Source of the DNA: Ethanoligenens harbinense YUAN-3
GTDB taxonomy: Bacteria > Bacillota > Clostridia > Oscillospirales > Ethanoligenentaceae
Assembly (NCBI RefSeq): GCF_000178115.2
Contig: NC_014828.1
Span: 643,501-707,500, forward strand
Length of the DNA: 64,000 nucleotides
Direction: 5' to 3'
The notes under the pieces were generated by a model. That model did no database searches. It was not told where the DNA came from and saw nothing but the letters and a program-made list of their open reading frames with translations. Positions 30,728-58,466 of this stretch are shown here, piece after piece. The translations under genes were made by a program, and so were the position numbers. Within the stretch, counting starts at the first letter, position 1. Each line of letters starts with the position of its first letter.

Positions 30728-30793
30728 ATGGCTAACTACACACTCCTCTACATTCAATTGTGATTTCCCGATGCGGATAAAACGGCGCAGCAT

Positions 30794-31282: not shown

Positions 31283-34200
31283 GTTTCAATCCACGCTCTC
31301 CGTGTGGAGAGCGACTTTCCTCCTGGCAAAATTAAAACAGAATATATATATTTCAATCCACGCTCTCCGTGTGGAGAGCGACCGCCGTCAAGGGTGCTAC
31401 GCGTCGCTTACAGCGATATTTCAATCCACGCTCTCCGTGTGGAGAGCGACCCCCGTCTGATGATGACCGGATGGCTACCGGTCGATTTCAATCCACGCTC
31501 TCCGTGTGGAGAGCGACGGCCGATTCGATAGATTTAAGGCTATCCAGTTTAATTTCAATCCACGCTCTCCGTGTGGAGAGCGACTTTCCTCCTGGCAAAA
31601 TTAAAACAGAATATATATATTTCAATCCACGCTCTCCGTGTGGAGAGCGACTCCCAGCAGTTTGCCAGCATGGTATACGCTCCATAATTTCAATCCACGC
31701 TCTCCGTGTGGAGAGCGACCAACAACACCCATGTGGGCGCGCAGATCACGCTGCATTTCAATCCACGCTCTCCGTGTGGAGAGCGACCTTGTCGATGTTT
31801 ACGTCGGGTTAAGTGTCTATCATTTCAATCCACGCTCTCCGTGTGGAGAGCGACCCTGTACTATGATGGAGTTCGCATTCATTGGACAACATTTCAATCC
31901 ACGCTCTCCGTGTGGAGAGCGACTGGCACGGGATATTTATGGTCGCATTCGAGGTACATTTCAATCCACGCTCTCCGTGTGGAGAGCGACGCGCGCGTGG
32001 GTCTGTCAAACTGCGTAAACAGAAATTTCAATCCACGCTCTCCGTGTGGAGAGCGACTACGCATCAACTTACGAGATATCATGACAAGAGCATTTCAATC
32101 CACGCTCTCCGTGTGGAGAGCGACCAGAAGCAGAGGCGAAGCCGCAATGGCCGCAACGGATTTCAATCCACGCTCTCCGTGTGGAGAGCGACAAAGGCAA
32201 TGTGGTGCTGCAGGTGCCGGAGGACATTTCAATCCACGCTCTCCGTGTGGAGAGCGACATACAGGCTTGGATTTGGATAATGTCGCTTCCATATTTCAAT
32301 CCACGCTCTCCGTGTGGAGAGCGACCCTCGGTAACCGCAGAGGTATCCGCACTGGTGGATATTTCAATCCACGCTCTCCGTGTGGAGAGCGACCGCAGCA
32401 GCGCCGCCGTGGCAACGTCCTGCTGGACATTTCAATCCACGCTCTCCGTGTGGAGAGCGACCGGATCGTGGCTGACATATGGTGATATCGAGAACATTTC
32501 AATCCACGCTCTCCGTGTGGAGAGCGACCCGTGGTGGTTAGCTACCAGATCGATGTCCCGTACATTTCAATCCACGCTCTCCGTGTGGAGAGCGACCTAA
32601 GCAGGGCGTTACATTCACCGCTGATCAGGATTTCAATCCACGCTCTCCGTGTGGAGAGCGACTTGTCTGTGGGAATACGTTGCCTTTGATGTTGGTATTT
32701 CAATCCACGCTCTCCGTGTGGAGAGCGACCTTTCCTTGACATTTCAACCAACCTTTCCTGCAAATTTCAATCCACGCTCTCCGTGTGGAGAGCGACCACA
32801 ACTACACCATATTGATGTATATTTCTGCAAAATTTCAATCCACGCTCTCCGTGTGGAGAGCGACTCTGCCGAGCAGGTAGTCTGTTGATGTTTTGAATAT
32901 TTCAATCCACGCTCTCCGTGTGGAGAGCGACCCACGTGATCGGATGGTTTTATCAGCTGTTTCCTATTTCAATCCACGCTCTCCGTGTGGAGAGCGACGT
33001 ATAGACCTTTGTGGCTCTGGTTGTCGCACAGTTATTTCAATCCACGCTCTCCGTGTGGAGAGCGACCTGCCCTGGGCGAGATCAAAGAAAACTATGTGAC
33101 ATTTCAATCCACGCTCTCCGTGTGGAGAGCGACTGATACCCGCCAACATACGATTGGCATTACGTTAATTTCAATCCACGCTCTCCGTGTGGAGAGCGAC
33201 CATACTTTTACCACACTGGCGCTGGATGGCGGCGCATTTCAATCCACGCTCTCCGTGTGGAGAGCGACGCAACTTCCTCCTGCGCTCCGTGAGACTATCT
33301 ATATTTCAATCCACGCTCTCCGTGTGGAGAGCGACTACAACGGGTTCAGGCAGTGCAAACATTGAAAAAGATTTCAATCCACGCTCTCCGTGTGGAGAGC
33401 GACCCTGCCACGATTGCCGGATATCGCCGTATCCAGAAATTTCAATCCACGCTCTCCGTGTGGAGAGCGACCGATGGCAGAGAGGATCAACCTTGAGCAT
33501 CTGGATAATTTCAATCCACGCTCTCCGTGTGGAGAGCGACACAAGCAGGTGGCGGGATATCTCAACGCCAAGAAATTTCAATCCACGCTCTCCGTGTGGA
33601 GAGCGACAGATACTGCTTTATTCCATAGCTGTTGGTGGTAACATTTCAATCCACGCTCTCCGTGTGGAGAGCGACTTTCGCATGGCGGCAGTTGGGATGG
33701 AACAATCCGATATTTCAATCCACGCTCTCCGTGTGGAGAGCGACTTGACGATCATCTTGGTGACGCCGGTGACGTTCTGATTTCAATCCACGCTCTCCGT
33801 GTGGAGAGCGACCTGCACTATGGTTTTCATATCCATACAATAAGATCATTTCAATCCACGCTCTCCGTGTGGAGAGCGACTGCGCTTGGCATGTTGAGTA
33901 TGCGCGCAGCACAAATTTCAATCCACGCTCTCCGTGTGGAGAGCGACATATACATTTTGGCGTAGTAACATGAATGATATTATTTCAATCCACGCTCTCC
34001 GTGTGGAGAGCGACGGCGGCTGTTACTATTATCCGCAAACGGTACATTGATTTCAATCCACGCTCTCCGTGTGGAGAGCGACCCAACACACAACAACGAC
34101 GACAAAATAATCATATATTTCAATCCACGCTCTCCGTGTGGAGAGCGACTTCCCGCGTCGCCGAGGATGACACGCAGCATATCCATTTCAATCCACGCTC

Positions 34201-37200
34201 TCCGTGTGGAGAGCGACGCGGCGATATCCCGGCGGATAACGTGATCGAGGTTATTTCAATCCACGCTCTCCGTGTGGAGAGCGACACCGATTGGGGTATT
34301 TTTTTGCTACTGTGTCACAATTTCAATCCACGCTCTCCGTGTGGAGAGCGACGACGCGCGGCCGCAGCGGGGGTGGCAACGGTATGAAATTTCAATCCAC
34401 GCTCTCCGTGTGGAGAGCGACGTTTTTATATTTGAGGTTTTATGGGATGAAAAAATTTCAATCCACGCTCTCCGTGTGGAGAGCGACCCGAGGGCCTGAC
34501 CAGCAGGCCCACACCACACACATTTCAATCCACGCTCTCCGTGTGGAGAGCGACTCCGATCGCGCCGGGCATACTCCCGAGGATTAAAATTTCAATCCAC
34601 GCTCTCCGTGTGGAGAGCGACCTCAAAATTCGCAATCACATTCGTATGCGTTGGCATTTCAATCCACGCTCTCCGTGTGGAGAGCGACAGTTGCATAGTA
34701 TTGCAACACCATTTTAGTAGACATTTCAATCCACGCTCTCCGTGTGGAGAGCGACTTGGGCATCTGGTTATTTGGTTGTTCGTGCAGGAATTTCAATCCA
34801 CGCTCTCCGTGTGGAGAGCGACCTTCCCCCATCTGGCCGCTGTCGACCATGCATAATATTTCAATCCACGCTCTCCGTGTGGAGAGCGACGATATTTATG
34901 ATGTGGATTTTGAGGTAAAACGGATATTTCAATCCACGCTCTCCGTGTGGAGAGCGACCATCACAACCATCATAATCAGGAATACTTTCACTGATTTCAA
35001 TCCACGCTCTCCGTGTGGAGAGCGACCCTTTTGTTTTGAACCACATATACATTATAACACAATTTCAATCCACGCTCTCCGTGTGGAGAGCGACGCTTGT
35101 TGATGGTTTATGGATGGAATACGTTGATAATTTCAATCCACGCTCTCCGTGTGGAGAGCGACTGATTTTGCCCAATCATTGTGATGTTTGACGCTAATTT
35201 CAATCCACGCTCTCCGTGTGGAGAGCGACGCTCTTGATTGTCATGCTTATCATATATTTTTGAAATTTCAATCCACGCTCTCCGTGTGGAGAGCGACGTG
35301 ATAAGCAATCAGTGTAATAGTTACGTGTTGATTTCAATCCACGCTCTCCGTGTGGAGAGCGACATTCTGAAGTCCTTTAGCATGAAAGTTCCCAAAGATT
35401 TCAATCCACGCTCTCCGTGTGGAGAGCGACATCAAGGTTTCCGCCAATTACCGTTGAATTTGCCATTTCAATCCACGCTCTCCGTGTGGAGAGCGACCAT
35501 CCCGGCGCAAGGTACACAAGACATCCTGCGTATTTCAATCCACGCTCTCCGTGTGGAGAGCGACTATCGGATCGCCTATTGACCTTGCCAGCGTACCCAT
35601 TTCAATCCACGCTCTCCGTGTGGAGAGCGACTTGTCTGCGGGGCGACGGACAGCGGGGTCAAAATCATTTCAATCCACGCTCTCCGTGTGGAGAGCGACT
35701 TTTAATATCCGGAGTGATTTCTCCGGGCTTTGTATTTCAATCCACGCTCTCCGTGTGGAGAGCGACCGGCATCAGCAGCGCTTTTTCCGACGGCTTAGGC
35801 ATTTCAATCCACGCTCTCCGTGTGGAGAGCGACCAGCCCTCACCAATGATGATGCAGTCCCCGGTTCCATTTCAATCCACGCTCTCCGTGTGGAGAGCGA
35901 CTCCACAGGGGCGCAGGGCTTAGGGCACCGGTGAAATTTCAATCCACGCTCTCCGTGTGGAGAGCGACGTATTGGATTCCCCAAATCCTCTATAATTGAA
36001 CTATTTCAATCCACGCTCTCCGTGTGGAGAGCGACGCTGGACGCGTTGAAAGCCCGCATCGACCGTATAATTTCAATCCACGCTCTCCGTGTGGAGAGCG
36101 ACCTCACCTGCTCTACAGCACCGCAAAGGGTGACGATTTCAATCCACGCTCTCCGTGTGGAGAGCGACCTTACCAGACAGGTGTTCAGACACGCGTCCTT
36201 GCGATTTCAATCCACGCTCTCCGTGTGGAGAGCGACATTGGACCGGATGGGTCTCTGGTAGCCTACCTCGATTTCAATCCACGCTCTCCGTGTGGAGAGC
36301 GACGGGGTTTCTATGGAAGGGTTAATGTCCCAATATAAATTTCAATCCACGCTCTCCGTGTGGAGAGCGACACCAGCACACGGGACAGGCCGAGGGAGAA
36401 GCTCTCATTTCAATCCACGCTCTCCGTGTGGAGAGCGACCGCAGACACAGGCCAATCACTTTTGGCAGACCATCATTTCAATCCACGCTCTCCGTGTGGA
36501 GAGCGACGCATGCGTGGTGCCACGGGTATATCACCAACGATATTTCAATCCACGCTCTCCGTGTGGAGAGCGACACAAAGTATGTAATAAATATAACCAT
36601 GCATAACAATTTCAATCCACGCTCTCCGTGTGGAGAGCGACCTTACTTTTTTACCATTTTGCATTATGTCAATAATTTCAATCCACGCTCTCCGTGTGGA
36701 GAGCGACGAGTATCCTTCCATGATGTTGTGACTTAACTCGTGTTATTTCAATCCACGCTCTCCGTGTGGAGAGCGACGTCACCTTCCAGCCCATCCTCAA
36801 CGAGACCCCTATATTTCAATCCACGCTCTCCGTGTGGAGAGCGACATTCTGCGATTACGATGTTATGTGCAGAGTTAGAATTTCAATCCACGCTCTCCGT
36901 GTGGAGAGCGACAGTGGGTGCACGGCGAAATTGCACCCTGCATGGAAATTTCAATCCACGCTCTCCGTGTGGAGAGCGACTGAGTTATCATTAACAGATA
37001 TTAAGCACTATATGGAATTTCAATCCACGCTCTCCGTGTGGAGAGCGACGCAATCCAGTCCGTTATTGCCGTATACGCTGATCATTTCAATCCACGCTCT
37101 CCGTGTGGAGAGCGACTGATTGCATCTTTGGGCATGGGTGCATGTGCAATCATTTCAATCCACGCTCTCCGTGTGGAGAGCGACCAGTTCCGTCAGTGAA

Positions 37201-40200
37201 ATGACTGGGCATGCCTATGATTTCAATCCACGCTCTCCGTGTGGAGAGCGACTCGCACCCAGCGTCAACAGGCAAAGGCACGGTTGATTTCAATCCACGC
37301 TCTCCGTGTGGAGAGCGACGGACAAGTGACATAGATATTATAAGATATCAAGAATTTCAATCCACGCTCTCCGTGTGGAGAGCGACTCCGCTACGGCGGC
37401 AATCAGGATAACAGCTATTTATTTCAATCCACGCTCTCCGTGTGGAGAGCGACCAACGACAGACAGTTATCCTATGAACGACGTGATATTTCAATCCACG
37501 CTCTCCGTGTGGAGAGCGACTTATGACTGTTGATAATCTGAAACGTTATGCTATATTTCAATCCACGCTCTCCGTGTGGAGAGCGACTTAGCCCAGCGTG
37601 CCGCAATGCTATAAAGATAATATTTCAATCCACGCTCTCCGTGTGGAGAGCGACCGTCGGGCACCACGACGAACCGGTGAGCGGATGCATTTCAATCCAC
37701 GCTCTCCGTGTGGAGAGCGACTGTCAATCCAGAACATGCAATCAGGGCAACTTGTATTTCAATCCACGCTCTCCGTGTGGAGAGCGACTGCTACATTGGC
37801 TAATATGTATTCTACTGAAATTATTTCAATCCACGCTCTCCGTGTGGAGAGCGACCTTTCTGAAAATAATCCAGAGGATTGACCACCATTTCAATCCACG
37901 CTCTCCGTGTGGAGAGCGACGCACAGGGCAAGGGCAAGTCTACTGTGCTGGCCAATTTCAATCCACGCTCTCCGTGTGGAGAGCGACGATGGATGCTATT
38001 AATACACCAATGGATGTAATTATTTCAATCCACGCTCTCCGTGTGGAGAGCGACTCATAATTTTGACTTCCTTTGCAATAATGTCATGATTTCAATCCAC
38101 GCTCTCCGTGTGGAGAGCGACTTGTTGCGATATACAAGAAAGACGCAGCATTTCAAAATTTCAATCCACGCTCTCCGTGTGGAGAGCGACGCGATATCCC
38201 CGGAAAGCATCGCCGGGGGAATATATTTCAATCCACGCTCTCCGTGTGGAGAGCGACGGTTTCAGAATTTAAAACAGAGGGGATAGAATGTATTTCAATC
38301 CACGCTCTCCGTGTGGAGAGCGACAATATCAGGCAATCATAACTTCACTTAAATATAAATTTCAATCCACGCTCTCCGTGTGGAGAGCGACTCGGCGTTC
38401 GGATGGGTGCCACGGATGGATCGAAATTTCAATCCACGCTCTCCGTGTGGAGAGCGACGTGAGGAGGTGTGAAAGCATGAGCAATCTTCCTCATTTCAAT
38501 CCACGCTCTCCGTGTGGAGAGCGACCACTCTGGATACTGTTGTTGATGATGTACACAATATTTCAATCCACGCTCTCCGTGTGGAGAGCGACCAACGGAC
38601 ACAGTGGGACATGCTACCAATATACCATTTCAATCCACGCTCTCCGTGTGGAGAGCGACTCAGCGAGGTTGTTTTTGACGGGAATCCGGGCTTTATTTCA
38701 ATCCACGCTCTCCGTGTGGAGAGCGACCAGCCTTATCACTCCCGAGCACCGGTATAAGCCCATTTCAATCCACGCTCTCCGTGTGGAGAGCGACTTCCTT
38801 TACCGCTACTCCCTGCCGCTTGGATGGAATTTCAATCCACGCTCTCCGTGTGGAGAGCGACCTACACCAGTTATATCACCGAGTATGGCCTTGCCATTTC
38901 AATCCACGCTCTCCGTGTGGAGAGCGACAGGGCCTCGCGGCTATCAGACAAGCTATCCAAACATTTCAATCCACGCTCTCCGTGTGGAGAGCGACAAGTA
39001 TATAACTCCATCTCCGCCACTCCGGGTGTATTTCAATCCACGCTCTCCGTGTGGAGAGCGACCGGACGCTGCCGGGGCGCATGGCGTGGACTATTGGATT
39101 TCAATCCACGCTCTCCGTGTGGAGAGCGACCGTGCTGGTTCTTGTCGTCAAGCATATCATTTCCATTTCAATCCACGCTCTCCGTGTGGAGAGCGACTCC
39201 ACCATCTCGCCGCGCTGAGCGCGGTGTATTAATTTCAATCCACGCTCTCCGTGTGGAGAGCGACCCTCAAACTACCGATTCGACAAACAGCGGGACAAAA
39301 TTTCAATCCACGCTCTCCGTGTGGAGAGCGACTCCAGCGAGGGATTACAGCTCGGCAGGTGTTCAAATTTCAATCCACGCTCTCCGTGTGGAGAGCGACA
39401 AGGATACCGCGTTGTCGTTTACGCCGGGTATCAATTTCAATCCACGCTCTCCGTGTGGAGAGCGACGCGACACGCGAAGTAATGACTGGTATACGGAAAT
39501 ATTTCAATCCACGCTCTCCGTGTGGAGAGCGACTCCAGCGAGGGATTACAGCTCGGCAGGTGTTCAAATTTCAATCCACGCTCTCCGTGTGGAGAGCGAC
39601 TCCCCCTCACGCAAGCATCGGCAGAATCGCTTTTATTTCAATCCACGCTCTCCGTGTGGAGAGCGACCTCGCATTGTTTCTTGTAGTTCTTCAGCGCTGA
39701 GTATTTCAATCCACGCTCTCCGTGTGGAGAGCGACTACAGGGCGACACTGTGTTGCAAATCTCGAATTAATTTCAATCCACGCTCTCCGTGTGGAGAGCG
39801 ACTGACAGCCTTTGACGCCACGCACGGCCTGACCGTCATTTCAATCCACGCTCTCCGTGTGGAGAGCGACTCCAGCGAGGGATTACAGCTCGGCAGGTGT
39901 TCAAATTTCAATCCACGCTCTCCGTGTGGAGAGCGACTATCGACAAGGGCAATCTGTGTCGCTTCCATCTCAATTTCAATCCACGCTCTCCGTGTGGAGA
40001 GCGACTCCAGCGAGGGATTACAGCTCGGCAGGTGTTCAAATTTCAATCCACGCTCTCCGTGTGGAGAGCGACCGGATTTTCTTGTTTTGGTAGTTGAAGA
40101 TTTGAGATTTCAATCCACGCTCTCCGTGTGGAGAGCGACTCGAGCGGCGTATGATCGGTGGGCAGCTGATCACCATTTCAATCCACGCTCTCCGTGTGGA

Positions 40201-43200
40201 GAGCGACGTAATTTATGCGCGGAACTGCTATCGTGCACCGTAATTTCAATCCACGCTCTCCGTGTGGAGAGCGACCTTAAAATCGCCTTGCTTTGAGTTA
40301 AATCCATCCAATTTCAATCCACGCTCTCCGTGTGGAGAGCGACTGTGACCGATGGCCCCAAATGTGATACCGTTTTCATTTCAATCCACGCTCTCCGTGT
40401 GGAGAGCGACGCCAGCACCAATGCGAGCAGCGCCGTAACAACTGCATTTCAATCCACGCTCTCCGTGTGGAGAGCGACCCACACCGTTCACATGTATAAT
40501 ACTTCGATTCAAGATTTCAATCCACGCTCTCCGTGTGGAGAGCGACGAACCCGCCATTTTCACAAGCAGAGCAATTTATTATTTCAATCCACGCTCTCCG
40601 TGTGGAGAGCGACCGATGGCAACCACAACATCGTTGTGCCTTTTACTATTTCAATCCACGCTCTCCGTGTGGAGAGCGACCCGGGAACACCTACACCGCG
40701 TCCTTGCAGAAGCATTTCAATCCACGCTCTCCGTGTGGAGAGCGACACGCAGGGCTGATTATGACCGTATCCACCGAGATATTTCAATCCACGCTCTCCG
40801 TGTGGAGAGCGACCTATCGGCGCATCGTATCTGGCAGTATTTTTGAACATTTCAATCCACGCTCTCCGTGTGGAGAGCGACGTCCGGCGGGACGTTCTAC
40901 CAGTCTACCACAAATATTTCAATCCACGCTCTCCGTGTGGAGAGCGACTCCTCCTCGTATTCTCTTCGCGTTTCTTCACGGTAATTTCAATCCACGCTCT
41001 CCGTGTGGAGAGCGACTTCCACGACAAACCTTTTTTGTCGCAATCAAAATATTTCAATCCACGCTCTCCGTGTGGAGAGCGACGATGCCGGCAACTCGGA
41101 CAGCGCCACACGTACACATTTCAATCCACGCTCTCCGTGTGGAGAGCGACCAGCCCGCGTAAAAAAGGCATCCGAACCAGTGACATTTCAATCCACGCTC
41201 TCCGTGTGGAGAGCGACACGACATGCGTGTAGCTGTTTTAGCCAAACCCATAATTTCAATCCACGCTCTCCGTGTGGAGAGCGACACACAAAAGATGCCC
41301 TGCAATACATCGTTGGGTTATTTCAATCCACGCTCTCCGTGTGGAGAGCGACTGGCAAGTAACGTTCATTTTGCAGAGCCAAAGTCATTTCAATCCACGC
41401 TCTCCGTGTGGAGAGCGACCGAAACTGGTCTGCCGACTTCGACTGGATGATCATTTCAATCCACGCTCTCCGTGTGGAGAGCGACCGAAAATAACGTCAT
41501 GCAGCATCAGACCACCGCCTATTTCAATCCACGCTCTCCGTGTGGAGAGCGACCTGCATAGTCCTTGTTTCGACGTGCGCGCTTGGTATTTCAATCCACG
41601 CTCTCCGTGTGGAGAGCGACCCATTGCAGCACTCATGTCCAGCGTTCGGAAATATTTCAATCCACGCTCTCCGTGTGGAGAGCGACCTCGGCCGAATCTG
41701 CAATCATCCAGCTCAAAAGCATTTCAATCCACGCTCTCCGTGTGGAGAGCGACTAACCCAACGATGTATTCCAGCGCACTTCTTGTTATTTCAATCCACG
41801 CTCTCCGTGTGGAGAGCGACGAGGATGTGTTCGATGGTGCGTCCACCGCTTTCTATTTCAATCCACGCTCTCCGTGTGGAGAGCGACCGTTCCGTTTTTG
41901 TTTAACGCCAGCTGGAATGTTATTTCAATCCACGCTCTCCGTGTGGAGAGCGACCACGATACAGTGTAAATGATATAATATAGACAGTATTTCAATCCAC
42001 GCTCTCCGTGTGGAGAGCGACTTTGATGATTGGGAAGACGACGAGTCAGAAGATTATTTCAATCCACGCTCTCCGTGTGGAGAGCGACCATCCGCACCGA
42101 CATAGATCATGGTCGGAATTGCAATTTCAATCCACGCTCTCCGTGTGGAGAGCGACGACATCTTTTGTAGACTTATACCCAGTGATTGCAATTTCAATCC
42201 ACGCTCTCCGTGTGGAGAGCGACTTTCAACAACAGACGGTTTTACAATTATGTGAGTATTTCAATCCACGCTCTCCGTGTGGAGAGCGACATTTCGTGCC
42301 GGAAAGCTTCGGTAGTGTCATAAAATTTCAATCCACGCTCTCCGTGTGGAGAGCGACAGATGTCGTGCTGCCCCGCCGCTTTTGGCGGCTCATTTCAATC
42401 CACGCTCTCCGTGTGGAGAGCGACCAACGGATGCTTACCTGTGGGAATTGTGCGAAGAAATTTCAATCCACGCTCTCCGTGTGGAGAGCGACATATTGGG
42501 AATCACATGCTTGGTGGTTCGACGATATTTCAATCCACGCTCTCCGTGTGGAGAGCGACTCAAGCTGACGATCATAGTCCACGCCGATGATGTATTTCAA
42601 TCCACGCTCTCCGTGTGGAGAGCGACTGTCCCTCTCTGCTATACTATCCACAGGGGTGTCATTTCAATCCACGCTCTCCGTGTGGAGAGCGACGTGCAGA
42701 CAGTCCGTTGATTACAGACACGATGCCATTTCAATCCACGCTCTCCGTGTGGAGAGCGACGCCATTGCAGCACTCATGTCCAGCGTTCGGAAATATTTCA
42801 ATCCACGCTCTCCGTGTGGAGAGCGACCATTGCACTTGCTGCAGATGTTCCGGCTATTCTAATTTCAATCCACGCTCTCCGTGTGGAGAGCGACAGAAGG
42901 GCAGATCGTCTTCTCCACTGATTTCTACATTTCAATCCACGCTCTCCGTGTGGAGAGCGACTAAGAACATAAATATATATATAGGGGGTTTTAAGGAATT
43001 TCAATCCACGCTCTCCGTGTGGAGAGCGACTGACATCACCGGGGCAATCAAGCGCATGGCTGATATTTCAATCCACGCTCTCCGTGTGGAGAGCGACCAT
43101 GTTCTGGCTGTGCTCAATAGATGCGCAATAACATTTCAATCCACGCTCTCCGTGTGGAGAGCGACCAATGGCCCACCAGATTGCAATGCCCACTGAAAGA

Positions 43201-46200
43201 TTTCAATCCACGCTCTCCGTGTGGAGAGCGACTCTTACCAGTCAATGCAGCTTCACCAGCAGTACCAATTTCAATCCACGCTCTCCGTGTGGAGAGCGAC
43301 GTGACCTCATCAACTGCAACGTGACCGTGCTGCAATTTCAATCCACGCTCTCCGTGTGGAGAGCGACGCGTCGGAAATGTGATCGAATAGGGGAAATTCT
43401 CATTTCAATCCACGCTCTCCGTGTGGAGAGCGACTGGCACTTTGGTTCAAGGCCAAGTTGGAACGACTCATTTCAATCCACGCTCTCCGTGTGGAGAGCG
43501 ACACAAACCTTTTTAATCTTCCCCGCCGTGGCAACATTTCAATCCACGCTCTCCGTGTGGAGAGCGACCGGCTCTTGGATTTTTGCCATTTATAAAGTAA
43601 TTATTTCAATCCACGCTCTCCGTGTGGAGAGCGACGCCGCCCCATAGAGGGCGGCATTTTTATGCGAAAATTTCAATCCACGCTCTCCGTGTGGAGAGCG
43701 ACCCACACGTGCCGCAACACATGCTCCGAAAAATGCATTTCAATCCACGCTCTCCGTGTGGAGAGCGACCTCACGCTGGATGGCATCACCGTAGACGCAA
43801 AAATATTTCAATCCACGCTCTCCGTGTGGAGAGCGACTGTTGCAATTGAAGCACTGGTGCTTGCACTGCCATTTCAATCCACGCTCTCCGTGTGGAGAGC
43901 GACCCATAGCTTTCAGCTTTGGCGAACGGTCAAACACATTTCAATCCACGCTCTCCGTGTGGAGAGCGACGTGTTTACTCTGCGCATCTCAAGCACCCCT
44001 TTATATTTCAATCCACGCTCTCCGTGTGGAGAGCGACCATACCCGGTGCCCTCAGACACCTTGATGAAAGCATTTCAATCCACGCTCTCCGTGTGGAGAG
44101 CGACGTGCAGACAGTCCGTTGATTACAGACACGATGCCATTTCAATCCACGCTCTCCGTGTGGAGAGCGACCCAGCAAGACGATACATTCCGATTGCTCA
44201 TATAAAATTTCAATCCACGCTCTCCGTGTGGAGAGCGACGGCAGCGCCAGCACCAGCGCGTCAATGGCAACCGATTTCAATCCACGCTCTCCGTGTGGAG
44301 AGCGACCGCCATCCGCCTGCCAGTCACGGATCATCTCCAAAATTTCAATCCACGCTCTCCGTGTGGAGAGCGACGGAAATTCCAAGAGTGCGGCGGAGTT
44401 CGATTGGCATTTCAATCCACGCTCTCCGTGTGGAGAGCGACACAGACGCTCTTGTATCGCCTGCTCCATCTTATTATTTCAATCCACGCTCTCCGTGTGG
44501 AGAGCGACACCTGCTTGACCGGCTGGACGGTCTGCGCGTGCCCATTTCAATCCACGCTCTCCGTGTGGAGAGCGACCTTGGATGACGAGGAGCTTGCCGA
44601 GGCGGTCGAAATTTCAATCCACGCTCTCCGTGTGGAGAGCGACGCATCGTGCGTACCATTGCTTTCAGGCACATAGAAATTTCAATCCACGCTCTCCGTG
44701 TGGAGAGCGACTTCAAAATGTGCCGCTACCCGTCATTATTTCATCATTTCAATCCACGCTCTCCGTGTGGAGAGCGACCGGATGGCCGCGTACACCTGCT
44801 ATACTCCACGGATATTTCAATCCACGCTCTCCGTGTGGAGAGCGACACATCATCATTTGCCCTTTGCACCGCAGATGGGCATTTCAATCCACGCTCTCCG
44901 TGTGGAGAGCGACGCGGTCAGTGTTTGTTTTGTACGTACCAGATGAAATTTCAATCCACGCTCTCCGTGTGGAGAGCGACATATGTTGCTGTCGTTGCTT
45001 GACGTATAGGTGTTATTTCAATCCACGCTCTCCGTGTGGAGAGCGACTGAACAGCTTTCAAAGGCGACCGCGCCGATAATTATTTCAATCCACGCTCTCC
45101 GTGTGGAGAGCGACAGCACCCGCCGTTATACGTTGACGGGTGCTTAAGATTTCAATCCACGCTCTCCGTGTGGAGAGCGACCATTGAGCAGCACATTTAC
45201 CCCGTCGTCATGCAAATTTCAATCCACGCTCTCCGTGTGGAGAGCGACCTTTCAGTCCCTCGGCGTTCCACATTAAATTTCCATTTCAATCCACGCTCTC
45301 CGTGTGGAGAGCGACTACGGGCTTATGCGAGATTGATGCATACGCGATTATTTCAATCCACGCTCTCCGTGTGGAGAGCGACTGTGCTGGATGCCCAGCA
45401 AATTGCAGATGGTGTATTTCAATCCACGCTCTCCGTGTGGAGAGCGACCCGGTATCAGCACCACTGTTGATCTTAACACAGCATTTCAATCCACGCTCTC
45501 CGTGTGGAGAGCGACATAATCTGTTCGCCATTTGCCTTACAAGTTTGATATTTCAATCCACGCTCTCCGTGTGGAGAGCGACCTGTTGAAGCGACCTATA
45601 AGGCACAGCTCGCAGTATTTCAATCCACGCTCTCCGTGTGGAGAGCGACTGACCGACTGGAACGTGAAAAACCGATCGAAGGAATTTCAATCCACGCTCT
45701 CCGTGTGGAGAGCGACGACAGACCACAATTGCCGCGACAATCACCGCAACATTTCAATCCACGCTCTCCGTGTGGAGAGCGACGCAACCAACGTAGCAGA
45801 TATCGTATCCAGCATCATTTCAATCCACGCTCTCCGTGTGGAGAGCGACCAGATTGTAATGCCCACTGAAAGAAATCCTTAACATTTCAATCCACGCTCT
45901 CCGTGTGGAGAGCGACTTTCCGTCCAGTGCAAGCGGATACCATCATAATACATTTCAATCCACGCTCTCCGTGTGGAGAGCGACTGTATGCGCGTTGTCA
46001 TCGTCAAGTAATCAATCAATTTCAATCCACGCTCTCCGTGTGGAGAGCGACTATCACCGCCTTATAAGATATTATTATATCATACATTTCAATCCACGCT
46101 CTCCGTGTGGAGAGCGACATATTATATCATTGACACTGTATAATGTCAATACATTTCAATCCACGCTCTCCGTGTGGAGAGCGACTCACGGATAAGCATA

Positions 46201-49200
46201 GAATCAGATATGGAGGATTGATTTCAATCCACGCTCTCCGTGTGGAGAGCGACCCAACATTCTTGACCCGAACACGGACGCGAAGAAATTTCAATCCACG
46301 CTCTCCGTGTGGAGAGCGACCCAACATTCTTGACCCGAACACGGACGCGAAGAAATTTCAATCCACGCTCTCCGTGTGGAGAGCGACCCCATCTGAACGC
46401 CGAAAGAAATTAATATCCTTGCATTTCAATCCACGCTCTCCGTGTGGAGAGCGACATCTTTCTGCTACATACATTCCTTCCGTGCAGAAAATTTCAATCC
46501 ACGCTCTCCGTGTGGAGAGCGACTACATGGGCCTTGGGTCTGTGTCTTTGATTAATAATTTCAATCCACGCTCTCCGTGTGGAGAGCGACAACACATACG
46601 CCCGCCGGTGGTGTCGGTTATACAATTTCAATCCACGCTCTCCGTGTGGAGAGCGACCCTTGAAAACCCGCGATGGGCGAATGTTTCTTACATTTCAATC
46701 CACGCTCTCCGTGTGGAGAGCGACTTTGGGTTATTTCCGGTTTATCAATCCATATGGCTATTTCAATCCACGCTCTCCGTGTGGAGAGCGACGTCAGTGC
46801 CGCCGGTGCCGGCCCCCTTGTTCCACATTTCAATCCACGCTCTCCGTGTGGAGAGCGACCAAATCGTTTCCCGTTTGCCATAACGCCGTTCATATTTCAA
46901 TCCACGCTCTCCGTGTGGAGAGCGACTCATCAAGTGACGGGGGCTTTCCTCCGCCGCCTCCCATTTCAATCCACGCTCTCCGTGTGGAGAGCGACTATAC
47001 ACGGCAGAAAACCGTCCGCATATGTCGCATTTCAATCCACGCTCTCCGTGTGGAGAGCGACTCAGTTGATTTCCGTTCTCGCGCCGAAGGAACTGATTTC
47101 AATCCACGCTCTCCGTGTGGAGAGCGACTTTCTTAGCGGTTGCACTACAACCGCTATAATGCTATTTCAATCCACGCTCTCCGTGTGGAGAGCGACTTAA
47201 TTGCCATATCCATTCCCCCTCAAATATGCCTATTTCAATCCACGCTCTCCGTGTGGAGAGCGACCATCAGCCAGCCGCTTCCGACGCTGGATCAAAGCAT
47301 TTCAATCCACGCTCTCCGTGTGGAGAGCGACTCCGCATATGGCGCGCAAAATTGTGGATGAAATCATTTCAATCCACGCTCTCCGTGTGGAGAGCGACAT
47401 TAACAGTTTGTTCATAAATGTGGTTTGGAGGGATTTCAATCCACGCTCTCCGTGTGGAGAGCGACTTGATGGAATTGTCGGACGGCGATGTGAGAAAATA
47501 TTTCAATCCACGCTCTCCGTGTGGAGAGCGACTGGTACATCCGGCGCGGTTGGGCGAGCCATATATCATTTCAATCCACGCTCTCCGTGTGGAGAGCGAC
47601 CCTACGGGCGGATTTTTTATGCCTAAAAGGAGCTATTTCAATCCACGCTCTCCGTGTGGAGAGCGACTTGATGGAATTGTCGGACGGCGATGTGAGAAAA
47701 TATTTCAATCCACGCTCTCCGTGTGGAGAGCGACTTTTCCCGTATAGGCTGTATTGGATGCCCTATGGATTTCAATCCACGCTCTCCGTGTGGAGAGCGA
47801 CGGGCATTACATGTAAGCGAAATATGCCGCATTATATTTCAATCCACGCTCTCCGTGTGGAGAGCGACCGTGGGAAAAAATCATGACCGGCAGCTACAAT
47901 GAATTTCAATCCACGCTCTCCGTGTGGAGAGCGACTCCGGTTGAGCACGCCATCTCTACGATATCTTTGCATTTCAATCCACGCTCTCCGTGTGGAGAGC
48001 GACTTTTTGCGGGCTTGAGACCGCCAGTGGCCGCATTATTTCAATCCACGCTCTCCGTGTGGAGAGCGACGGTCACCCAGCGACGCGTCCACCGGCTCCC
48101 GGTCATTTCAATCCACGCTCTCCGTGTGGAGAGCGACGGACATCTTTTGTAGACTTATACCCAGTGATTGCATTTCAATCCACGCTCTCCGTGTGGAGAG
48201 CGACGTGATACCATTGATCGTTATAGTTGTCCGGGGAAATTTCAATCCACGCTCTCCGTGTGGAGAGCGACAAATCCCAGCCGTAGAACTGGTATACGCA
48301 AAGATATTTCAATCCACGCTCTCCGTGTGGAGAGCGACATAAGAGATTTGAAAAGCCCGTGGTTTCGTCCATATTTCAATCCACGCTCTCCGTGTGGAGA
48401 GCGACCAAACCATATTTTCCGCCGGACGCGTTTGCAAGGTATTTCAATCCACGCTCTCCGTGTGGAGAGCGACTACCGCTTGATCGTGCGTTGTGATGTC
48501 TTCACGCATTTCAATCCACGCTCTCCGTGTGGAGAGCGACTTGTATATAAACCCTTTTTGACTACCATAAATCGATTTCAATCCACGCTCTCCGTGTGGA
48601 GAGCGACTGTGCTGCATCCAGCAATACAGGCCCTTATGCTTATTTCAATCCACGCTCTCCGTGTGGAGAGCGACAATTTTACTTTCATACGTCATACGCC
48701 GCCTTGCAATTTCAATCCACGCTCTCCGTGTGGAGAGCGACTCAACCGACGCGATACCTACGCCAACTGGCAGAAATTTCAATCCACGCTCTCCGTGTGG
48801 AGAGCGACCATTGCCATATAATTATCCTCCTGTTTTTTCAGTATTTCAATCCACGCTCTCCGTGTGGAGAGCGACCGCGCGGTAGTATAATATAGTTACA
48901 GGGTAAGCGATTTCAATCCACGCTCTCCGTGTGGAGAGCGACGCGTCAGATAGGTGGTGGCAGGCATCACCTTGGTAATTTCAATCCACGCTCTCCGTGT
49001 GGAGAGCGACGAAAAAGCCGGTACAACACTGCGCGGAGCTTTGACATTTCAATCCACGCTCTCCGTGTGGAGAGCGACTAAATCCGCACTGGATAACAAG
49101 CGGCTGGAAATCATTTCAATCCACGCTCTCCGTGTGGAGAGCGACGCGTTACGCCCGGTTCCGATTTAAATGCCAGCGCATTTCAATCCACGCTCTCCGT

Positions 49201-50086
49201 GTGGAGAGCGACTCAGCGGTTCCGGCGTTACGCCCGGTTCCGATTTATTTCAATCCACGCTCTCCGTGTGGAGAGCGACCAGCAGGTCATTGTAGCTGCT
49301 CAGTACTTCCGCCATTTCAATCCACGCTCTCCGTGTGGAGAGCGACCGTTGGTTGCTGTATCCATCCAGCATGCGCTCGCATTTCAATCCACGCTCTCCG
49401 TGTGGAGAGCGACGGAAATCAGTTTGTCGCTTTGCTCTGCCATGTCATTTCAATCCACGCTCTCCGTGTGGAGAGCGACCACCGCCATTACGGACGAGCT
49501 TTCCGGCAGCATCGATTTCAATCCACGCTCTCCGTGTGGAGAGCGACTTCATTTGACATAATCGTGATGACGGCGGATGTGAATTTCAATCCACGCTCTC
49601 CGTGTGGAGAGCGACCTCATGTAGCTCCATATTTCTTGATACACGCTATATTTCAATCCACGCTCTCCGTGTGGAGAGCGACCCTTGAAAACCCGCGATG
49701 GGCGAATGTTTCTTACAATTTCAATCCACGCTCTCCGTGTGGAGAGCGACCCTTTTGGGCTAACGCATACGCCCTGTACACTAAATTTCAATCCACGCTC
49801 TCCGTGTGGAGAGCGACCTGCCGAATTTGCTTGCAATGTTATTTGCAAGGATATTTCAATCCACGCTCTCCGTGTGGAGAGCGACCCCCAGCCGGTGTGT
49901 TTCCAGAGCTTGCGGCCAAATTTCAATCCACGCTCTCCGTGTGGAGAGCGACCATCGACTTCATTCACGCTGTCCAGACGGCAAATATTTCAATCCACGC
50001 TCTCCGTGTGGAGAGCGACTCCACAAGCCGTCCAGAAGCCCGTACAGGAACCCATTTCAATCCACGCTCTCCGTGTGGAGAGCGAC
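31283..50086 (-). CRISPR. Very large type I-C CRISPR array (about 280 repeats, 279 spacers)
   Basis: A 33-base repeat occurs every 66-69 bases without interruption. Read on the minus strand it begins GTCGCTCTCC, has a loop ACAC, then GGAGAGC (7-bp stem) and ends GTGGATTGAAAT, a typical type I-C repeat. By hand I located 280 repeats (first core at 31284, last ending at 50086), average unit 67.3 bp, with spacers of about 33-36 bases. The repeats look identical except the most distal one (31283), whose last base is C (GAAAC). The array reads leftward from the leader next to cas2, so the spacers at the right end are the newest. Eight groups of repeated spacers and two overlapping pairs are visible. 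Confidence 0.99.
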
Positions 50087-50259
50087 AGCAAAAGCAGCAA
50101 AAATCACCTATGTTTTTGAGTTGTTTCCATGTTAAAATGCCCAATTTCGTTACTGGAACATGCTTTTTCAAACATGAAATCGACTTGAAACAGACGGATT
50201 TCGCCTATAACTTGGTGCGAAGCACACGGGAAAAGTCTGCGCGCTTATCCTTCGCACCG
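50087..50259 (-). promoter_or_regulatory. CRISPR leader
   Basis: This AT-rich stretch lies between the cas2 stop and the newest repeat. On the minus strand it starts with an inverted repeat GGTGCGAAG ... CTTCGCACC (50215-50259 region) and continues with TTTCAAGTCGATTTCATG, runs of A and T, and TTTTTGCTGC just before the first repeat. Leaders of this kind carry the array promoter and the site for new spacer insertion. Confidence 0.8.
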
Positions 50260-50550
50260 TCACAGAATCAATGGTTCTGTGACGTCAAACGATGGTTTGG
50301 CACCCATGTGCTCGACCTTTGTTTTGTAGTGGTTCCCGAGGTAGTAAAAGCGCAGGCTGTCTTTTTCCGGGTCGATGATTTGTTCCAACTTGTGCTTGAC
50401 CGAGCAGCACAGTGCGGCGTCCATAACGCATTCAAACACCGAATTTTGCACGCGTTGCCCGTAATTGACGCATTCCCGGGCGATTTTGCGGAGCCGTTTT
50501 CTTCCCGCAGCCGTTTCGGTATTGACATCGTATGTGATCAGGACCAGCAT
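50260..50550 (-). CDS. cas2: CRISPR-associated endonuclease Cas2 (type I-C)
   Basis: The 96-residue protein has the Cas2 ferredoxin-like fold markers MLVLITYDVNTETA (with the metal-site Asp), RLRKIARECVNYGQRVQNSV and FECVMDAAL, and ends with LRFYYLGNHYKTKVEHMG. It forms the Cas1-Cas2 complex that inserts spacers. ATG 50550 has GGTGA upstream and fits the family N-terminus; the frame is open to 50568. It follows cas1 closely and stands next to the leader. Confidence 0.97.
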   Translation of the reverse strand: MLVLITYDVNTETAAGRKRLRKIARECVNYGQRVQNSVFECVMDAALCCSVKHKLEQIIDPEKDSLRFYYLGNHYKTKVEHMGAKPSFDVTEPLIL

Positions 50551-50558
50551 GTTTTCAC

Positions 50559-51590
50559 CTATTTCCACAAAAATGGCGGGTATGTATCCAGGTCGCCCCG
50601 CAAAAAACGTGCCAGAAGCATTGCCTGTGCATAGGGCACCAATCCCCAGTCCATTTTTTCTCCGAGCAGCGGGTGGGTGATGGTTTCCTGTTTCTTTTTT
50701 TGCCAGGCGTTCAGAATGGCTTTGCGGCAGCTGTCATCCATGAGCACGGCGCCGTTTTCTTTTTGGATGAATCCGTCGGGGCTTACTTGTTTGGTGTTGA
50801 TCAGCGTCAGGACGAACCGGTCGGCCAAAACCGTACGCAGTTCCTCCACCAGATCCAGGGCCAGAGACACCCGCCCCGGGCGGTCGCGGTGCAAAAAGCC
50901 CACATACGGGTCAAGGCCCGCGCTTTCCAATGCCGCGGACGTATCATGCGCCAGCAGGGCGTATACAAACGAGGCCATGGCATTGACATTATCCGTCGGC
51001 GGGCGCCTGTTGCGGCCGTGAAAAAAGAACTGTTCCTTTTGTTGCAGGATCAGGTCGTCCAGGACGGAAAAATAGCGTGTGGCGGCCACACCTTCGATAC
51101 CGCGCAGTTCTTCCAAAGTCTGGGCCGACTGCACGGACAGAATGGATTTCGCCAACAAAGACGAGACCTGTTTTAGCTTTTCGGTATTCAACCGGGCCGC
51201 GTGGTCTCGAACCGCGCGTTCCACCACCCACCGCGCATTGAACAGTTTGCCGATGATAAAGTTCTTGGCCAACGGCAGGCTGTCTTGCTCGTTGTCCGAC
51301 AGGCGGTACTGGGTTTTGCGCAGCAAAACGTTGCCTTGCACGCTTCCGGAGACCCTCGCCAGAAAACGGCCGTGCGCGGTCAGAAAGGTGAGGGCAATAC
51401 CCCGTTCGGCGCAGCCGCCCATCAATGCGGGGCTGGCGCCGGTATAACCGAATGTCACGATGCCTTCCAGATTGTGCAGCGGCACGCGCAGCAACGTTTC
51501 TTGTTTTTGCTGCACGACCACGTTCTCTCCGTCCAGCGCCAGATACGCATCCGGCAAAGTGACATACAGGGTGTTGAGCAGCGTTTTCAT
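50559..51590 (-). CDS. cas1: CRISPR-associated integrase Cas1 (type I-C)
   Basis: The 343-residue protein matches I-C Cas1: MKTLLNTLYVTLPDAYLALD at the N-terminal beta domain, LEGIVTFGYTGASPALMGGC, ELRGIEGVAATRYF with the first metal-binding Glu, and GLDPYVGFLHRDRPGRVSLA then LDLVEELR with the catalytic His and Asp. It cuts and joins prespacers at the leader end of the array. Its start overlaps the cas4 stop by four bases. Confidence 0.98.
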   Translation of the reverse strand: MKTLLNTLYVTLPDAYLALDGENVVVQQKQETLLRVPLHNLEGIVTFGYTGASPALMGGCAERGIALTFLTAHGRFLARVSGSVQGNVLLRKTQYRLSDNEQDSLPLAKNFIIGKLFNARWVVERAVRDHAARLNTEKLKQVSSLLAKSILSVQSAQTLEELRGIEGVAATRYFSVLDDLILQQKEQFFFHGRNRRPPTDNVNAMASFVYALLAHDTSAALESAGLDPYVGFLHRDRPGRVSLALDLVEELRTVLADRFVLTLINTKQVSPDGFIQKENGAVLMDDSCRKAILNAWQKKKQETITHPLLGEKMDWGLVPYAQAMLLARFLRGDLDTYPPFLWK

Positions 51591-52252
51591 GGTACTTCCT
51601 CCAGCCGCTTGCGTAGATAAGCCGCCGCCGAACCGACCCGCTGCAATTTAGGCAGGCATAGTTCTTTCAGCGAGCATGCGTTGCAGCTTCTGGTTGGCTT
51701 TACCCGCGGCGTGTATTGTCTGCGGTACAGTTCGTGCATTTCGTCCGAAATGGCGCGCACACGCTGGCGCAGGTCATCGTCGAGCGCGACAACGGAACGG
51801 CGCGCCGTCTCGCCATAATAGAGGTATGCCTGCGGAATGCTGTCGCACACGAGCATTTCCTCCAGACACATGGCCTGTGCGCAGAGCTGCAGACGGTCGG
51901 CGTCGTTTTCCTTGGGACTGCCGCGCTTATATTCCACCGGTACGGGCAGCCATTTTCCCTCCCGACCAAAAAGCGGCACGCCCCTGGCGGAAGCGTGGAA
52001 TTCCACCACGTCGCAAACGCCGTTGATTCCCAGCTCCCTTGAAAATACCGACATGCCGCGCGAAATGAGCAAGTTGCCACGCTTTTCGGTGGCAAAGGCG
52101 TCGTGCGCCCGTTCATGCAGGAGGTGACCCTCGGTGGTACGCAGGTTTTCGGCCCACTGCATTTCGATATAAGCCAGCGCCCATTGCCGGCGGCAGAACG
52201 CAAAATGCTGGATGCCCGCCAGATTTAAGAATGCGTCTTCCTCATATGCCAT
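51587..52252 (-). CDS. cas4: CRISPR-associated nuclease Cas4
   Basis: The 221-residue RecB-like protein has an N-terminal cysteine in FAFCRRQWAL, the nuclease motif VPVEYKRGSPKEND and the C-terminal cysteine trio CNACSLKELCLPKL that with the first Cys would bind an iron-sulfur cluster. Cas4 trims prespacers and selects the PAM end during adaptation. ATG 52252 overlaps the end of cas7c by 11 bases; a longer frame to 52300 has no better start. Confidence 0.96.
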   Translation of the reverse strand: MAYEEDAFLNLAGIQHFAFCRRQWALAYIEMQWAENLRTTEGHLLHERAHDAFATEKRGNLLISRGMSVFSRELGINGVCDVVEFHASARGVPLFGREGKWLPVPVEYKRGSPKENDADRLQLCAQAMCLEEMLVCDSIPQAYLYYGETARRSVVALDDDLRQRVRAISDEMHELYRRQYTPRVKPTRSCNACSLKELCLPKLQRVGSAAAYLRKRLEEVP

Positions 52253-53090
52253 CTTCGATTTCCGGTTGCAGGCCGTCGAGCGCGTCTGCGGTGACGGCAT
52301 AGCCGGTCACGTCGCGGGGATCGCCGCCGTCACGCGGCAGCACATTCAGCGAACGGTGCACTTTGGCGGAAGAATACTGGCCGGTCTTGCAGTTGTGTTT
52401 CCACCAGATGACCTTGTAGACCTCCATGCTGCCGTCCGGCCGGGCGGCGGAACTGTCGTTTTCAAAGAGCGAACGCAGCGCCTGATGGATCAGCTCGGCA
52501 TCCTCGTCCGTAAACCCGGTCTTTTCGGCCAGTTGGCAGCTGATGCTGCCGAAAAAGGTATAGACGCCGAACGGTACGCGGTGTTTCATGCCCATCGTAT
52601 CGGACGACTTTTTATCGCCGGTGACGCTGTTGACACTTTTGGTAATCTGGATGCTCACGGCGTCGATGGGTTCGATGCTGAATGCCGGGTGCACCGACAC
52701 CGGGCCGCGCACGCCGACTGAAACGTCGCTGCCTTTAAACGCAAACACCTGTCCAAAGCTGCGCACATCCATCCACGCCGTACAGGCCGCTTTGGCAAAC
52801 GCGTCCTTGTCTTTGGCGGTTTCGGCTTTTTTCAGTTCCGTGCAGGCGTCCGCGCGCTCCCGCAGGCTCTTGAATCCGTCCACGCGGCGGTCGTCCGACT
52901 GCACGAAGATGGGCTGCCCCATATCCAGCAGGCGGTTGCGGATCTTGCGCTTGATGCAGACGTCGGAGATCTCACCCAGCCCCTCGTAGGTTTCGCGCGG
53001 GCGGTTGCCGTTGAGCGGGTCGCCGTTCGGGTTGGCGTTTTTGACGGAGAGGACCACGGCAAAGTCGATCTTGTTTGATAGAGTTCCCAT
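52242..53090 (-). CDS. cas7c: Cascade backbone protein Cas7 (Csd2, type I-C)
   Basis: The 282-residue Csd2-type Cas7 starts [20 protein letters not shown] with the family NANPNGDPLNGNRPR segment. It continues with SDVCIKRKIRNRL, DVRSFGQVFAF and GVRGPVSVHPAFSI, and ends KVIWWKHN and ALDGLQPEIEDGI. Several copies form the crRNA-binding backbone of the I-C interference complex. Its start overlaps the cas8c stop (TAATG). Confidence 0.97.
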   Translation of the reverse strand: MGTLSNKIDFAVVLSVKNANPNGDPLNGNRPRETYEGLGEISDVCIKRKIRNRLLDMGQPIFVQSDDRRVDGFKSLRERADACTELKKAETAKDKDAFAKAACTAWMDVRSFGQVFAFKGSDVSVGVRGPVSVHPAFSIEPIDAVSIQITKSVNSVTGDKKSSDTMGMKHRVPFGVYTFFGSISCQLAEKTGFTDEDAELIHQALRSLFENDSSAARPDGSMEVYKVIWWKHNCKTGQYSSAKVHRSLNVLPRDGGDPRDVTGYAVTADALDGLQPEIEDGI

Positions 53091-55057
53091 TATTCCTGCA
53101 CTCCTTCGGCGGTATTGGCTTTTTCTTTTTTATGGCGGTTGTATGCTTCCATTTCTTCGTGGAACGCCTGCATCTGGCAGGCATAGCCGAGCAGGTATTT
53201 TTCACTGAGCGGGGCGCTCGTGAAGGCCTCCGGCGGAATGCGTGAGAGGATCTCGTTGAGCTCGTCATGATACCGTGTCGCTTTTTTCCCAAGCCGGAGC
53301 AGATAGGGCCGCAGTTGGCGGTCTATGGTGAGCCAGGTGCGCGCGGGGTGCTGGCAGAATGCGGTTTGCAGCCGTTCCGCGTTGGTGCTGCGTTTTTCGC
53401 CCGCCCCATCCAGCGCATAGCTTTCGATCTTCTGCGCATAGGCCAGCGCGCGGCCGAAAAGATAGTCGCGCTCGTCGATCTGCTTGTCCAGTGCCATGGC
53501 CCAGACCTCCTTATAGGTTGCGTCTTTGATGGTTTCTCCGTTGTACCGGTCGTTGTGGTATTTGCGGATCAGCGCGCAGGCGATGCCACGCGTCTTGCGG
53601 ACTTCCCAGTCCTCCCTTCCCACGGGGTTCGACGCCCGGTGGACCGCGCAGAGCATGATGTCCCGCGGCAGGCGCGCGCCGTCGATGATGCAGGGCAGCA
53701 GACGCTGCACGATGTTCTTTTTCAGTTTGTCATCGGCGTTCGGCCCATAGGCGGCGAATACGATGTCTTTGGGAGACGGCGCGCCCACAAAGGCGACGTG
53801 TTTCCGCTTCTTTGCGTCCACGGGGTCGGGCACCCAGCCGTAATCGTGCGCCCAGCCGCAGGTGTCGTGCCAGCTTTGCACGCGGGCGAGGAAGTCCACG
53901 GCCTGCATCTCGCGGTAATAAAAAACGGAGAGCCTGCCGGGTGTGGCGGAGTCCAGCCCCATGATGGTGGCCTCCTCGCCGTTTTGCAGATCGCAGATAT
54001 AACCGGAAAGCGCCCGACGCAGCCTGGCCGCGAATTCGTCTTTGGTGGGGATAGGTTCCTCCGGTTTTTTCAGCTTGTTGAAAAACAAATCCAGCGCGTC
54101 GGCGCAGGGATCCGGCAGTTTTCTCCCGGTTGTGCCCCATGTCACGATCACCTGTTCTCCGTTGGGCCACCCCTGTCGGGAGATAAGCCAGCGCAGGGCG
54201 CTGTGCGCTTTTTCGGTGGTCTCCCGGCTGATGCAGAACGCCTCGGTGGCATCCCGGAACCGGCCGCGGAATGTGAAATTGCTGGTGTCGTTACTGGAAA
54301 TCAACTTTGCGCCGTCGCCGGGGTTACGAATCTTCTTGGGGCTGAGGGTAGATACCGGCAGTTCCTCGCCGCGCACATAGCAGATGTCCTGCTTTTGCTG
54401 CCGGTGGTTCTCATAGTCGATGTAACTCTGCCAAACGGCGGGGTTCTGCCAAAGTGCGCTGTGGATATCGGGGGAGCCGTCCGCCGGGACGACACGGAAC
54501 CGCACGAACGCATCGGTTTGTGCCCCGGCGCAGGCTTTGAAGATCGACGGCGTGTCCTCTTTTTTTCCGGCCCATTTGGCCGGCAGCGCGCCCGTTTCAT
54601 CCCGGAACAGGATGCCGTCCGCCATCAGATCCGCCATCAGCGTGCCTTTTTGCAGGTAGGCATAGAGTGCACGGACGTTCGGGTGCGCATACGGCGAGGC
54701 GCACCAGTCCGCGAGCGCGGTGATATACCCCTGAAAACCGCTTTTTTTGCCGGTGACACAGGTCTCGAAATCCCCGGCGATGTATTGCAGTTTGTCGAAC
54801 AGAGGGTGCGGTTCGAGTCCGCTGGTGCGTGCGCCGGAACTTTCCGTGCAGGGGATGATGGTGGTCATGTCGTTTTTGTTCAGAATCACCTGCGCCCGCC
54901 CGAGGCACCAGTTGCCGTCGCTGTCCACCACCGCCTCGATCTGCGCCTGTTGGGTGGTGTGGTAGATGGGCAGCAACGGGAGCTTGCCTTCTTCCGTTCT
55001 GCCGACTTCCCTCTGGCAGCTCTCATAGGTCTCATACAGTTTCTGCATCCAGCCCAT
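53090..55057 (-). CDS. cas8c: Cascade large subunit Cas8c (Csd1)
   Basis: A 655-residue Csd1 protein, near the usual size. Landmarks are [19 protein letters not shown] at the start, [72 protein letters not shown] and [15 protein letters not shown] near the end. It recognises the PAM and opens target DNA. In related I-C systems an internal start in this gene gives the small subunit Cas11c; I did not locate that start here. ATG 55057 has GAGGAGG upstream. It overlaps the cas5c end by 26 bases. Confidence 0.97.
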
Positions 55058-55775: not shown

Positions 55776-55827
55776 GTTTCGCTCCTTTCCGAATCCATAA
55801 TGGTCCTGTTCTGATTTCATAAAAAGG

Positions 55828-58272: not shown

Positions 58273-58326
58273 CACATCACCTGCCGACAAGTTTTTTACA
58301 GGATTGCCAAATTTCTGTATGTTTCG

Positions 58327-58355
58327 ACTATAGCATATAGACAGAGCACTGTCAA
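58327..58355 (-). promoter_or_regulatory. Promoter of the cas operon
   Basis: Minus-strand -35 TTGACA (58355-58350) and -10 TATAGT (58332-58327) separated by exactly 17 bases, 55 bases before the cas3 start. The close match to consensus suggests constitutive expression. A partial inverted repeat (CTCTGTCTATA / TATAGACAGAG) lies in the spacer. Confidence 0.75.
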
Positions 58356-58466
58356 CAAAAGCCAACGTCCGCGCGTGTCTACCGGGGAAACCGGCCTTTT
58401 GCGTGCAGAGGAACAGGAGCACGGGAACAAATAAAACAGGCGGGCCGGCATTATGTCATGCCTGGC

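What the first reader, a model, noticed from the sequence alone, without database searches (positions are those of the whole stretch)
31283..50086. Exceptionally long CRISPR array, about 279 spacers in one uninterrupted run
My manual scan gives 280 repeats over 18.8 kb (18771 bp over 279 intervals, mean 67.3). Most bacterial arrays have far fewer spacers. The repeats look identical along the whole length, which suggests active maintenance, recent growth or strong homogenisation. It fills about 29 percent of the window beside a complete I-C operon.
Basis: seen in the sequence. Interest (0 to 1): 0.75.

Follow-up and report, generated by a model that had tools for sequence, protein, structure and literature searches.

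The report
Very long type I-C CRISPR array
A bacterium of the gut-clostridium order carries an ordinary immune memory bank (a type I-C CRISPR array) that is unusually long, with 279 stored fragments against a typical 25 to 40, but it is not a record and its perfectly uniform repeats are normal for its relatives.

Summary
There are exactly 280 copies of a 32-nt repeat, all identical, at 31284-50086 on the minus strand, with 279 spacers (272 distinct). They lie downstream of a complete type I-C operon (cas3-5c-8c-7c-4-1-2), with the leader at 50087-50259. The repeat occurs nowhere else in the one-contig 3.01-Mb genome. The length is rare: a published fit predicts about 1 in 660 type I-C arrays this long, and it beat all 63 other repeat-positive genomes among 395 of its order (next 179). 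It is not a record: 587 spacers are known overall and 336 in a myxobacterial C-type (mainly I-C) array. Assembly inflation is unlikely, because no block of two or more spacers recurs. I read it as a working, growing array. Spacers resemble phage genes, partly those of the host's own prophage-like regions, with a TT-type PAM. Some targets were sampled twice with 1-nt slips; exact duplicates are local and probably arose by repeat recombination. One untested extra: a perfect sense-strand sigma-70 promoter inside spacer 59 could restart transcription of the 220 older spacers.

The parts
31284..50086 (-). CRISPR array: 280 identical 32-nt repeats, 279 spacers; leader-proximal (newest) end at 50086, trailer end at 31284
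50087..50259 (-). leader, between cas2 and the first repeat; ends in TTGCT, as do the leaders of three relatives
50260..50568 (-). cas2 (102 aa)
   Evidence: PADLOC Cas2c 4.8e-44; Pfam CRISPR_Cas2
50559..51590 (-). cas1 (343 aa)
   Evidence: PADLOC Cas1c 2e-161, full profile 1-337/337
51587..52300 (-). cas4 (237 aa)
   Evidence: PADLOC Cas4c 1.5e-88
52242..53090 (-). cas7c (282 aa)
   Evidence: PADLOC Cas7c 7.8e-105
53090..55246 (-). cas8c/csd1; the ORF is 718 aa but the profile match starts at residue 70, so the true start is probably near 55040
   Evidence: PADLOC Cas8c 1.4e-161; Pfam Cas_Csd1 8e-130
55032..55820 (-). cas5c (262 aa)
   Evidence: PADLOC Cas5c 8.2e-79
55828..58422 (-). cas3 (864 aa; HD domain plus helicase)
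   Evidence: PADLOC Cas3c 8.1e-199; Pfam Cas3_HD, DEAD, Cas3-like_C_2
46121..46149 (-). perfect sigma-70-type promoter (TTGACA-N17-TATAAT with TG before the -10) inside spacer 59, same direction as array transcription
   Evidence: 0.005 perfect matches expected per spacer-shuffled array
31284..31315 (-). terminal (oldest) repeat; only copy followed by C instead of T

Best explanation
This is a normal chromosomal type I-C CRISPR-Cas adaptive immune locus whose array has grown very long. Cas1-Cas2-Cas4 insert about 34-nt fragments of invading phage DNA at the leader end (50086), copying the first repeat each time. The array is transcribed leftward (minus strand), cut in the repeats by Cas5c, and the crRNAs guide the Cas5-Cas8c-Cas7 complex and Cas3 to matching DNA. 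Its length reflects many acquisitions retained with few large deletions. Uniform repeats follow from copying the leader repeat plus limited age or recombination. Shown here: anatomy, intact gene set, orientation, spacer count, and weak but well-above-control matches to phage-like genes. Inferred from established knowledge of type I-C: acquisition, processing and interference.
For: All seven I-C cas genes give near full-length profile matches. 280/280 identical repeats and spacers tightly sized at 32-37 nt. The leader end TTGCT is shared with relatives. In a set of own prophage-like regions and related viral contigs, spacers give 30 sites with <=8 mismatches against 1 for reversed spacers; some of the genes hit look phage-like to me (large terminase, tail-type, single-strand-binding and annealing proteins, my reading, not profile-tested). 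TT at -2/-1 upstream in 6 of 15 best sites (P=1.8e-4), or 8 of 17 with spacer-spacer overlaps, close to published I-C PAMs TTC/CTT/TTT (PMC8482600). One protospacer sampled again with a 1-nt slip in pairs 6/51, 29/118 and 109/126. Same repeat uniformity in relatives.
Against: No spacer has an exact match in the phage, plasmid or own-genome searches made; one spacer scanned in viral contigs was negative. The PAM rests on diverged homologous sites. Activity is not testable by sequence. No second strain was available to show leader-end turnover.
Confidence: 0.93

Rival explanations
1. The array is inflated by assembly error, and the real array is much shorter.
For: Repetitive arrays are hard to assemble; five spacer sequences recur exactly.
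Against: 272 of 279 spacers are distinct and no block of two or more consecutive spacers recurs, unlike the 10-spacer block repeats seen in relative G168. The genome is one contig.
Confidence: 0.03
2. The repeats are actively homogenised (gene conversion or repeated unequal recombination), and this keeps them identical.
For: Zero differences in 280 x 32 bases. Exact duplicate spacers are local (6 of 7 neighbouring copies within 5 units), which suggests some recombination between repeats.
Against: Arrays of relatives are equally uniform, with variation mostly confined to the trailer end where present. Copying from the leader repeat with a young array explains it; the rule-of-three bound on divergence is only 3e-4 per base.
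Confidence: 0.1
3. The array is partly a relic: adaptation continues but distal spacers are silent, so most of the memory is unused.
For: The transcript would be 18.8 kb. PMC10883916 describes premature termination that enriches leader-proximal crRNAs and a dilution effect in very long archaeal arrays.
Against: No sense-strand intrinsic-terminator-like site (0 of 26, all on the antisense strand); a perfect internal sense promoter lies in spacer 59.
Confidence: 0.3

Closest known systems
Type I-C CRISPR-Cas (cas3-cas5c-cas8c-cas7-cas4-cas1-cas2) of same-order relatives G168, G238 and G015
   Same: Same gene order where the fetched sequence covers it; Cas1 74/64/56% and Cas2 81/72/68% identical; 31-32-nt hairpin repeats; T after nearly every repeat; near-complete repeat uniformity
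   Different: 280 repeats here against 72, 23 and 179 pattern copies
Longest described arrays: Haliangium ochraceum, 587 spacers (PMC7145573); myxobacterial C-type (mainly I-C), up to 336 spacers (PMC11237760)
   Same: Hundreds of spacers in one array
   Different: Longer than this one; other phylum; C-type repeats there are 37 nt
Ornatilinea apprima P3M-1 (Chloroflexota) array
   Same: Identical 32-nt repeat, 172 copies
   Different: 33rd base C rather than T, different leader, no shared spacers, Cas1 57% and Cas7 34% identical

Membership tests
Type I-C CRISPR-Cas | signature cas8c (csd1) | tested here: met
   PADLOC Cas8c 1.4e-161, Pfam Cas_Csd1 8e-130
Type I-C CRISPR-Cas | cas3 with HD nuclease and helicase | tested here: met
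Type I-C CRISPR-Cas | cas5c and cas7c, with no cas6 in the operon | tested here: met
   Seven contiguous ORFs, each matched to a cas family other than cas6; cas6 elsewhere in the genome was not searched for
Type I-C CRISPR-Cas | adaptation module cas1-cas2-cas4 | tested here: met
Type I-C CRISPR-Cas | hairpin repeat of about 32 nt of the GTCGC...GCGTGGATTGAAA(T/C) kind, next to a leader | tested here: met
Type I-C CRISPR-Cas | 5' TTC (or TTT/CTT/TTN) PAM | tested here: inconclusive
   TT at -2/-1 enriched at diverged target sites; no exact protospacers found
Type I-C CRISPR-Cas | crRNA processing by Cas5c and DNA interference | not testable with these tools
   needs RNA-seq and transformation assays

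The most novel reading that the evidence does not exclude
The captured phage promoter in spacer 59 (perfect TTGACA-N17-TATAAT, TG-extended, sense strand) works as a second array promoter. It would split the array into a leader-driven new block (spacers 1-59) and an internally driven old block (60-279), so that a bacterium can keep a very long memory expressed without a dedicated anti-termination or chromatin factor such as the Cbp1 of Sulfolobales.
Probability: 0.15. Interest if true: 0.45.

Novelty: new member of a known kind. Interest (0 to 1): 0.25.

Why it matters
It is a clean, complete example of a bacterial array near the top of the known length range, next to an intact operon in a 3-Mb genome. 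That makes it a good test object for how expression, recombination and target re-sampling behave in very long arrays. It does not change the understanding of CRISPR.

Tried and rejected
Exact targets: megablast of the array against phages and plasmids found nothing; an exact scan of the fourfold spacer in IMG/VR found nothing; self-targeting showed only diverged matches. Phage-borne copy of the repeat: none in viral contigs. Cas8c scan of genome contigs found no relative. Tail-protein scan of viral contigs found none. Recent transfer of the locus from Ornatilinea, suggested by the identical repeat, was rejected because the cas proteins and leader differ. Repeat identity as something special was rejected by comparison with ten relatives' arrays.

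Full report
Observation. The array was parsed directly from the sequence. It has 280 copies of GTCGCTCTCCACACGGAGAGCGTGGATTGAAA on the minus strand from 50086 down to 31284, all identical. A T follows 279 of them and can be counted as a 33rd repeat base; the terminal copy has C. The 279 spacers are 32-37 nt (mode 34, 178 spacers) and 272 are distinct. The whole 3,008,576-bp single-contig genome has no other copy of the repeat.

Surroundings. Seven cas genes on the same strand (50260-58422) match I-C profiles over almost their full length: Cas2, Cas1, Cas4, Cas7c, Cas8c, Cas5c, Cas3. The leader is the 173 bases between the end of cas2 and the first repeat. Its last bases, TTGCT, are identical in three relatives, so the young end is at 50086 and the old end at 31284. 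Beyond the old end lies a 53-aa ORF with a weak match to the N-terminal domain of a phage integrase, probably a truncated gene.

How unusual is the length? A published analysis of class I arrays gives mean 40, median 25, and a geometric fit with p=0.023 for I-C (PMC5575924); by that fit 279 or more spacers has probability 0.0015. In a sample of 395 genomes of the same order, 64 carry I-C-type repeats; this genome has the most (280), followed by 179, 115, 104 and 102. In a sample of 299 from the phylum, one genome has 302 repeat copies in total, on both strands. Published records are 587 spacers (Haliangium, PMC7145573) and 336 in a myxobacterial C-type array, a repeat class found mainly in I-C CRISPRs (PMC11237760). 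So it is in the extreme tail but not a record. The open-access paper search for the suspected genus plus CRISPR listed seven papers, none of which by title concerns this array.

Are identical repeats special? No. The same analysis on relatives gives 179/180, 75/75, 69/69 and 23/23 identical repeats, with variants mostly confined to the trailer end where they occur. That pattern follows from each new repeat being a copy of the leader repeat. The bound on divergence here (3/(280x32), about 3e-4 per base) is compatible with a young array without any homogenising process.

Rearrangements and re-sampling. Five spacer sequences occur more than once: 36/39, 56/57, 89/110, 150/152/157/160 and 275/279. 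Six of the seven neighbouring pairs lie within five units, which never happened in 100,000 draws of seven random pairs. No block of two or more spacers recurs. In contrast, three pairs are the same protospacer with a 1-nt slip and lie far apart (109/126, 6/51, 29/118), and two pairs overlap partially (13/14, 63/103) (control with reversed spacers: none). I read the slipped pairs as independent re-acquisition and the exact local ones as mostly recombination between repeats, although repeated capture during one outbreak cannot be excluded. The absence of block repeats argues against assembly inflation; relative G168 shows what block duplication looks like.

Targets. No exact protospacer was found in the searches made: phages, plasmids and own genome, and one spacer in viral contigs. 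On a set of own prophage-like stretches and related viral or family loci (154 loci, 2.3 Mb), spacers gave 30 sites with at most 8 mismatches, against 1 for reversed spacers. The own-genome stretches were chosen because the array had weak matches there, so the contrast with the control is partly built in for them; the viral contigs were fetched by protein similarity alone. The spacers thus probably come from phages related to, but diverged from, those in the genome. From their translations I read some of the genes hit as large terminase, tail-type proteins, a single-strand-binding protein and an annealing protein (these names were not profile-tested). At one best site per spacer, TT stands at -2/-1 in 6 of 15 (P=1.8e-4 against 1/16), and in 8 of 17 with the two spacer-spacer overlaps. 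The own-genome sites of spacers 33 and 128 lack it (CGC, CGG), as tolerated self-sites should. An NTT-like PAM would fit published I-C PAMs CTT (Ruminococcus) and TTT (Lachnoclostridium), and the T after every repeat would fit the idea of a PAM-derived last repeat base in I-C (PMC8482600). This is suggestive, not settled.

Expression. No terminator-like site lies on the sense strand of the array (26 found, all antisense). Spacer 59 carries a perfect sigma-70 promoter in the sense direction, 46149-46121; 0.005 such perfect matches are expected per shuffled array. Spacer 121 carries a related sequence in the opposite direction (24/27). Cryptic promoters in long arrays are known in Sulfolobales (PMC10883916). 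Whether this one is used is untested.

Verdict. A known kind of system, correctly spotted and correctly counted, statistically exceptional in length, ordinary in repeat uniformity. The most useful lead is the internal promoter.

Noticed in passing
L123, L124 (Ornatilinea apprima NZ_LGCL01000016.1): A Chloroflexota genome has 172 copies of the identical 32-nt repeat but with C as 33rd base, different leader, unrelated spacers and diverged cas genes: repeat convergence or old transfer.
   Followed up: partly
window 46119-46152 (spacer 59): Perfect consensus sigma-70 promoter inside a spacer, in the direction of array transcription; spacer 121 holds a related sequence reversed.
   Followed up: partly
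window 31064-31225, minus strand: 53-aa ORF with a ribosome-binding-like site and a weak match to the N-terminal SAM-like domain of a phage integrase, directly beyond the terminal repeat; probably a truncated recombinase gene.
   Followed up: partly
L032 (G168:C1:1527000-1540000): Relative's I-C array with a 10-spacer block present in tandem up to three times: a clear block duplication.
   Followed up: no
window 26198-30793, minus strand: 1531-aa secreted-looking protein with Laminin_G_3, Ig-like (Big_4), metallophosphatase and FIVAR domains next to the array's old end.
   Followed up: no
G612 (47 + 255 repeat copies in total): A genome in the same phylum with 302 I-C-type repeat copies in total; single-array sizes were not resolved.
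   Followed up: no
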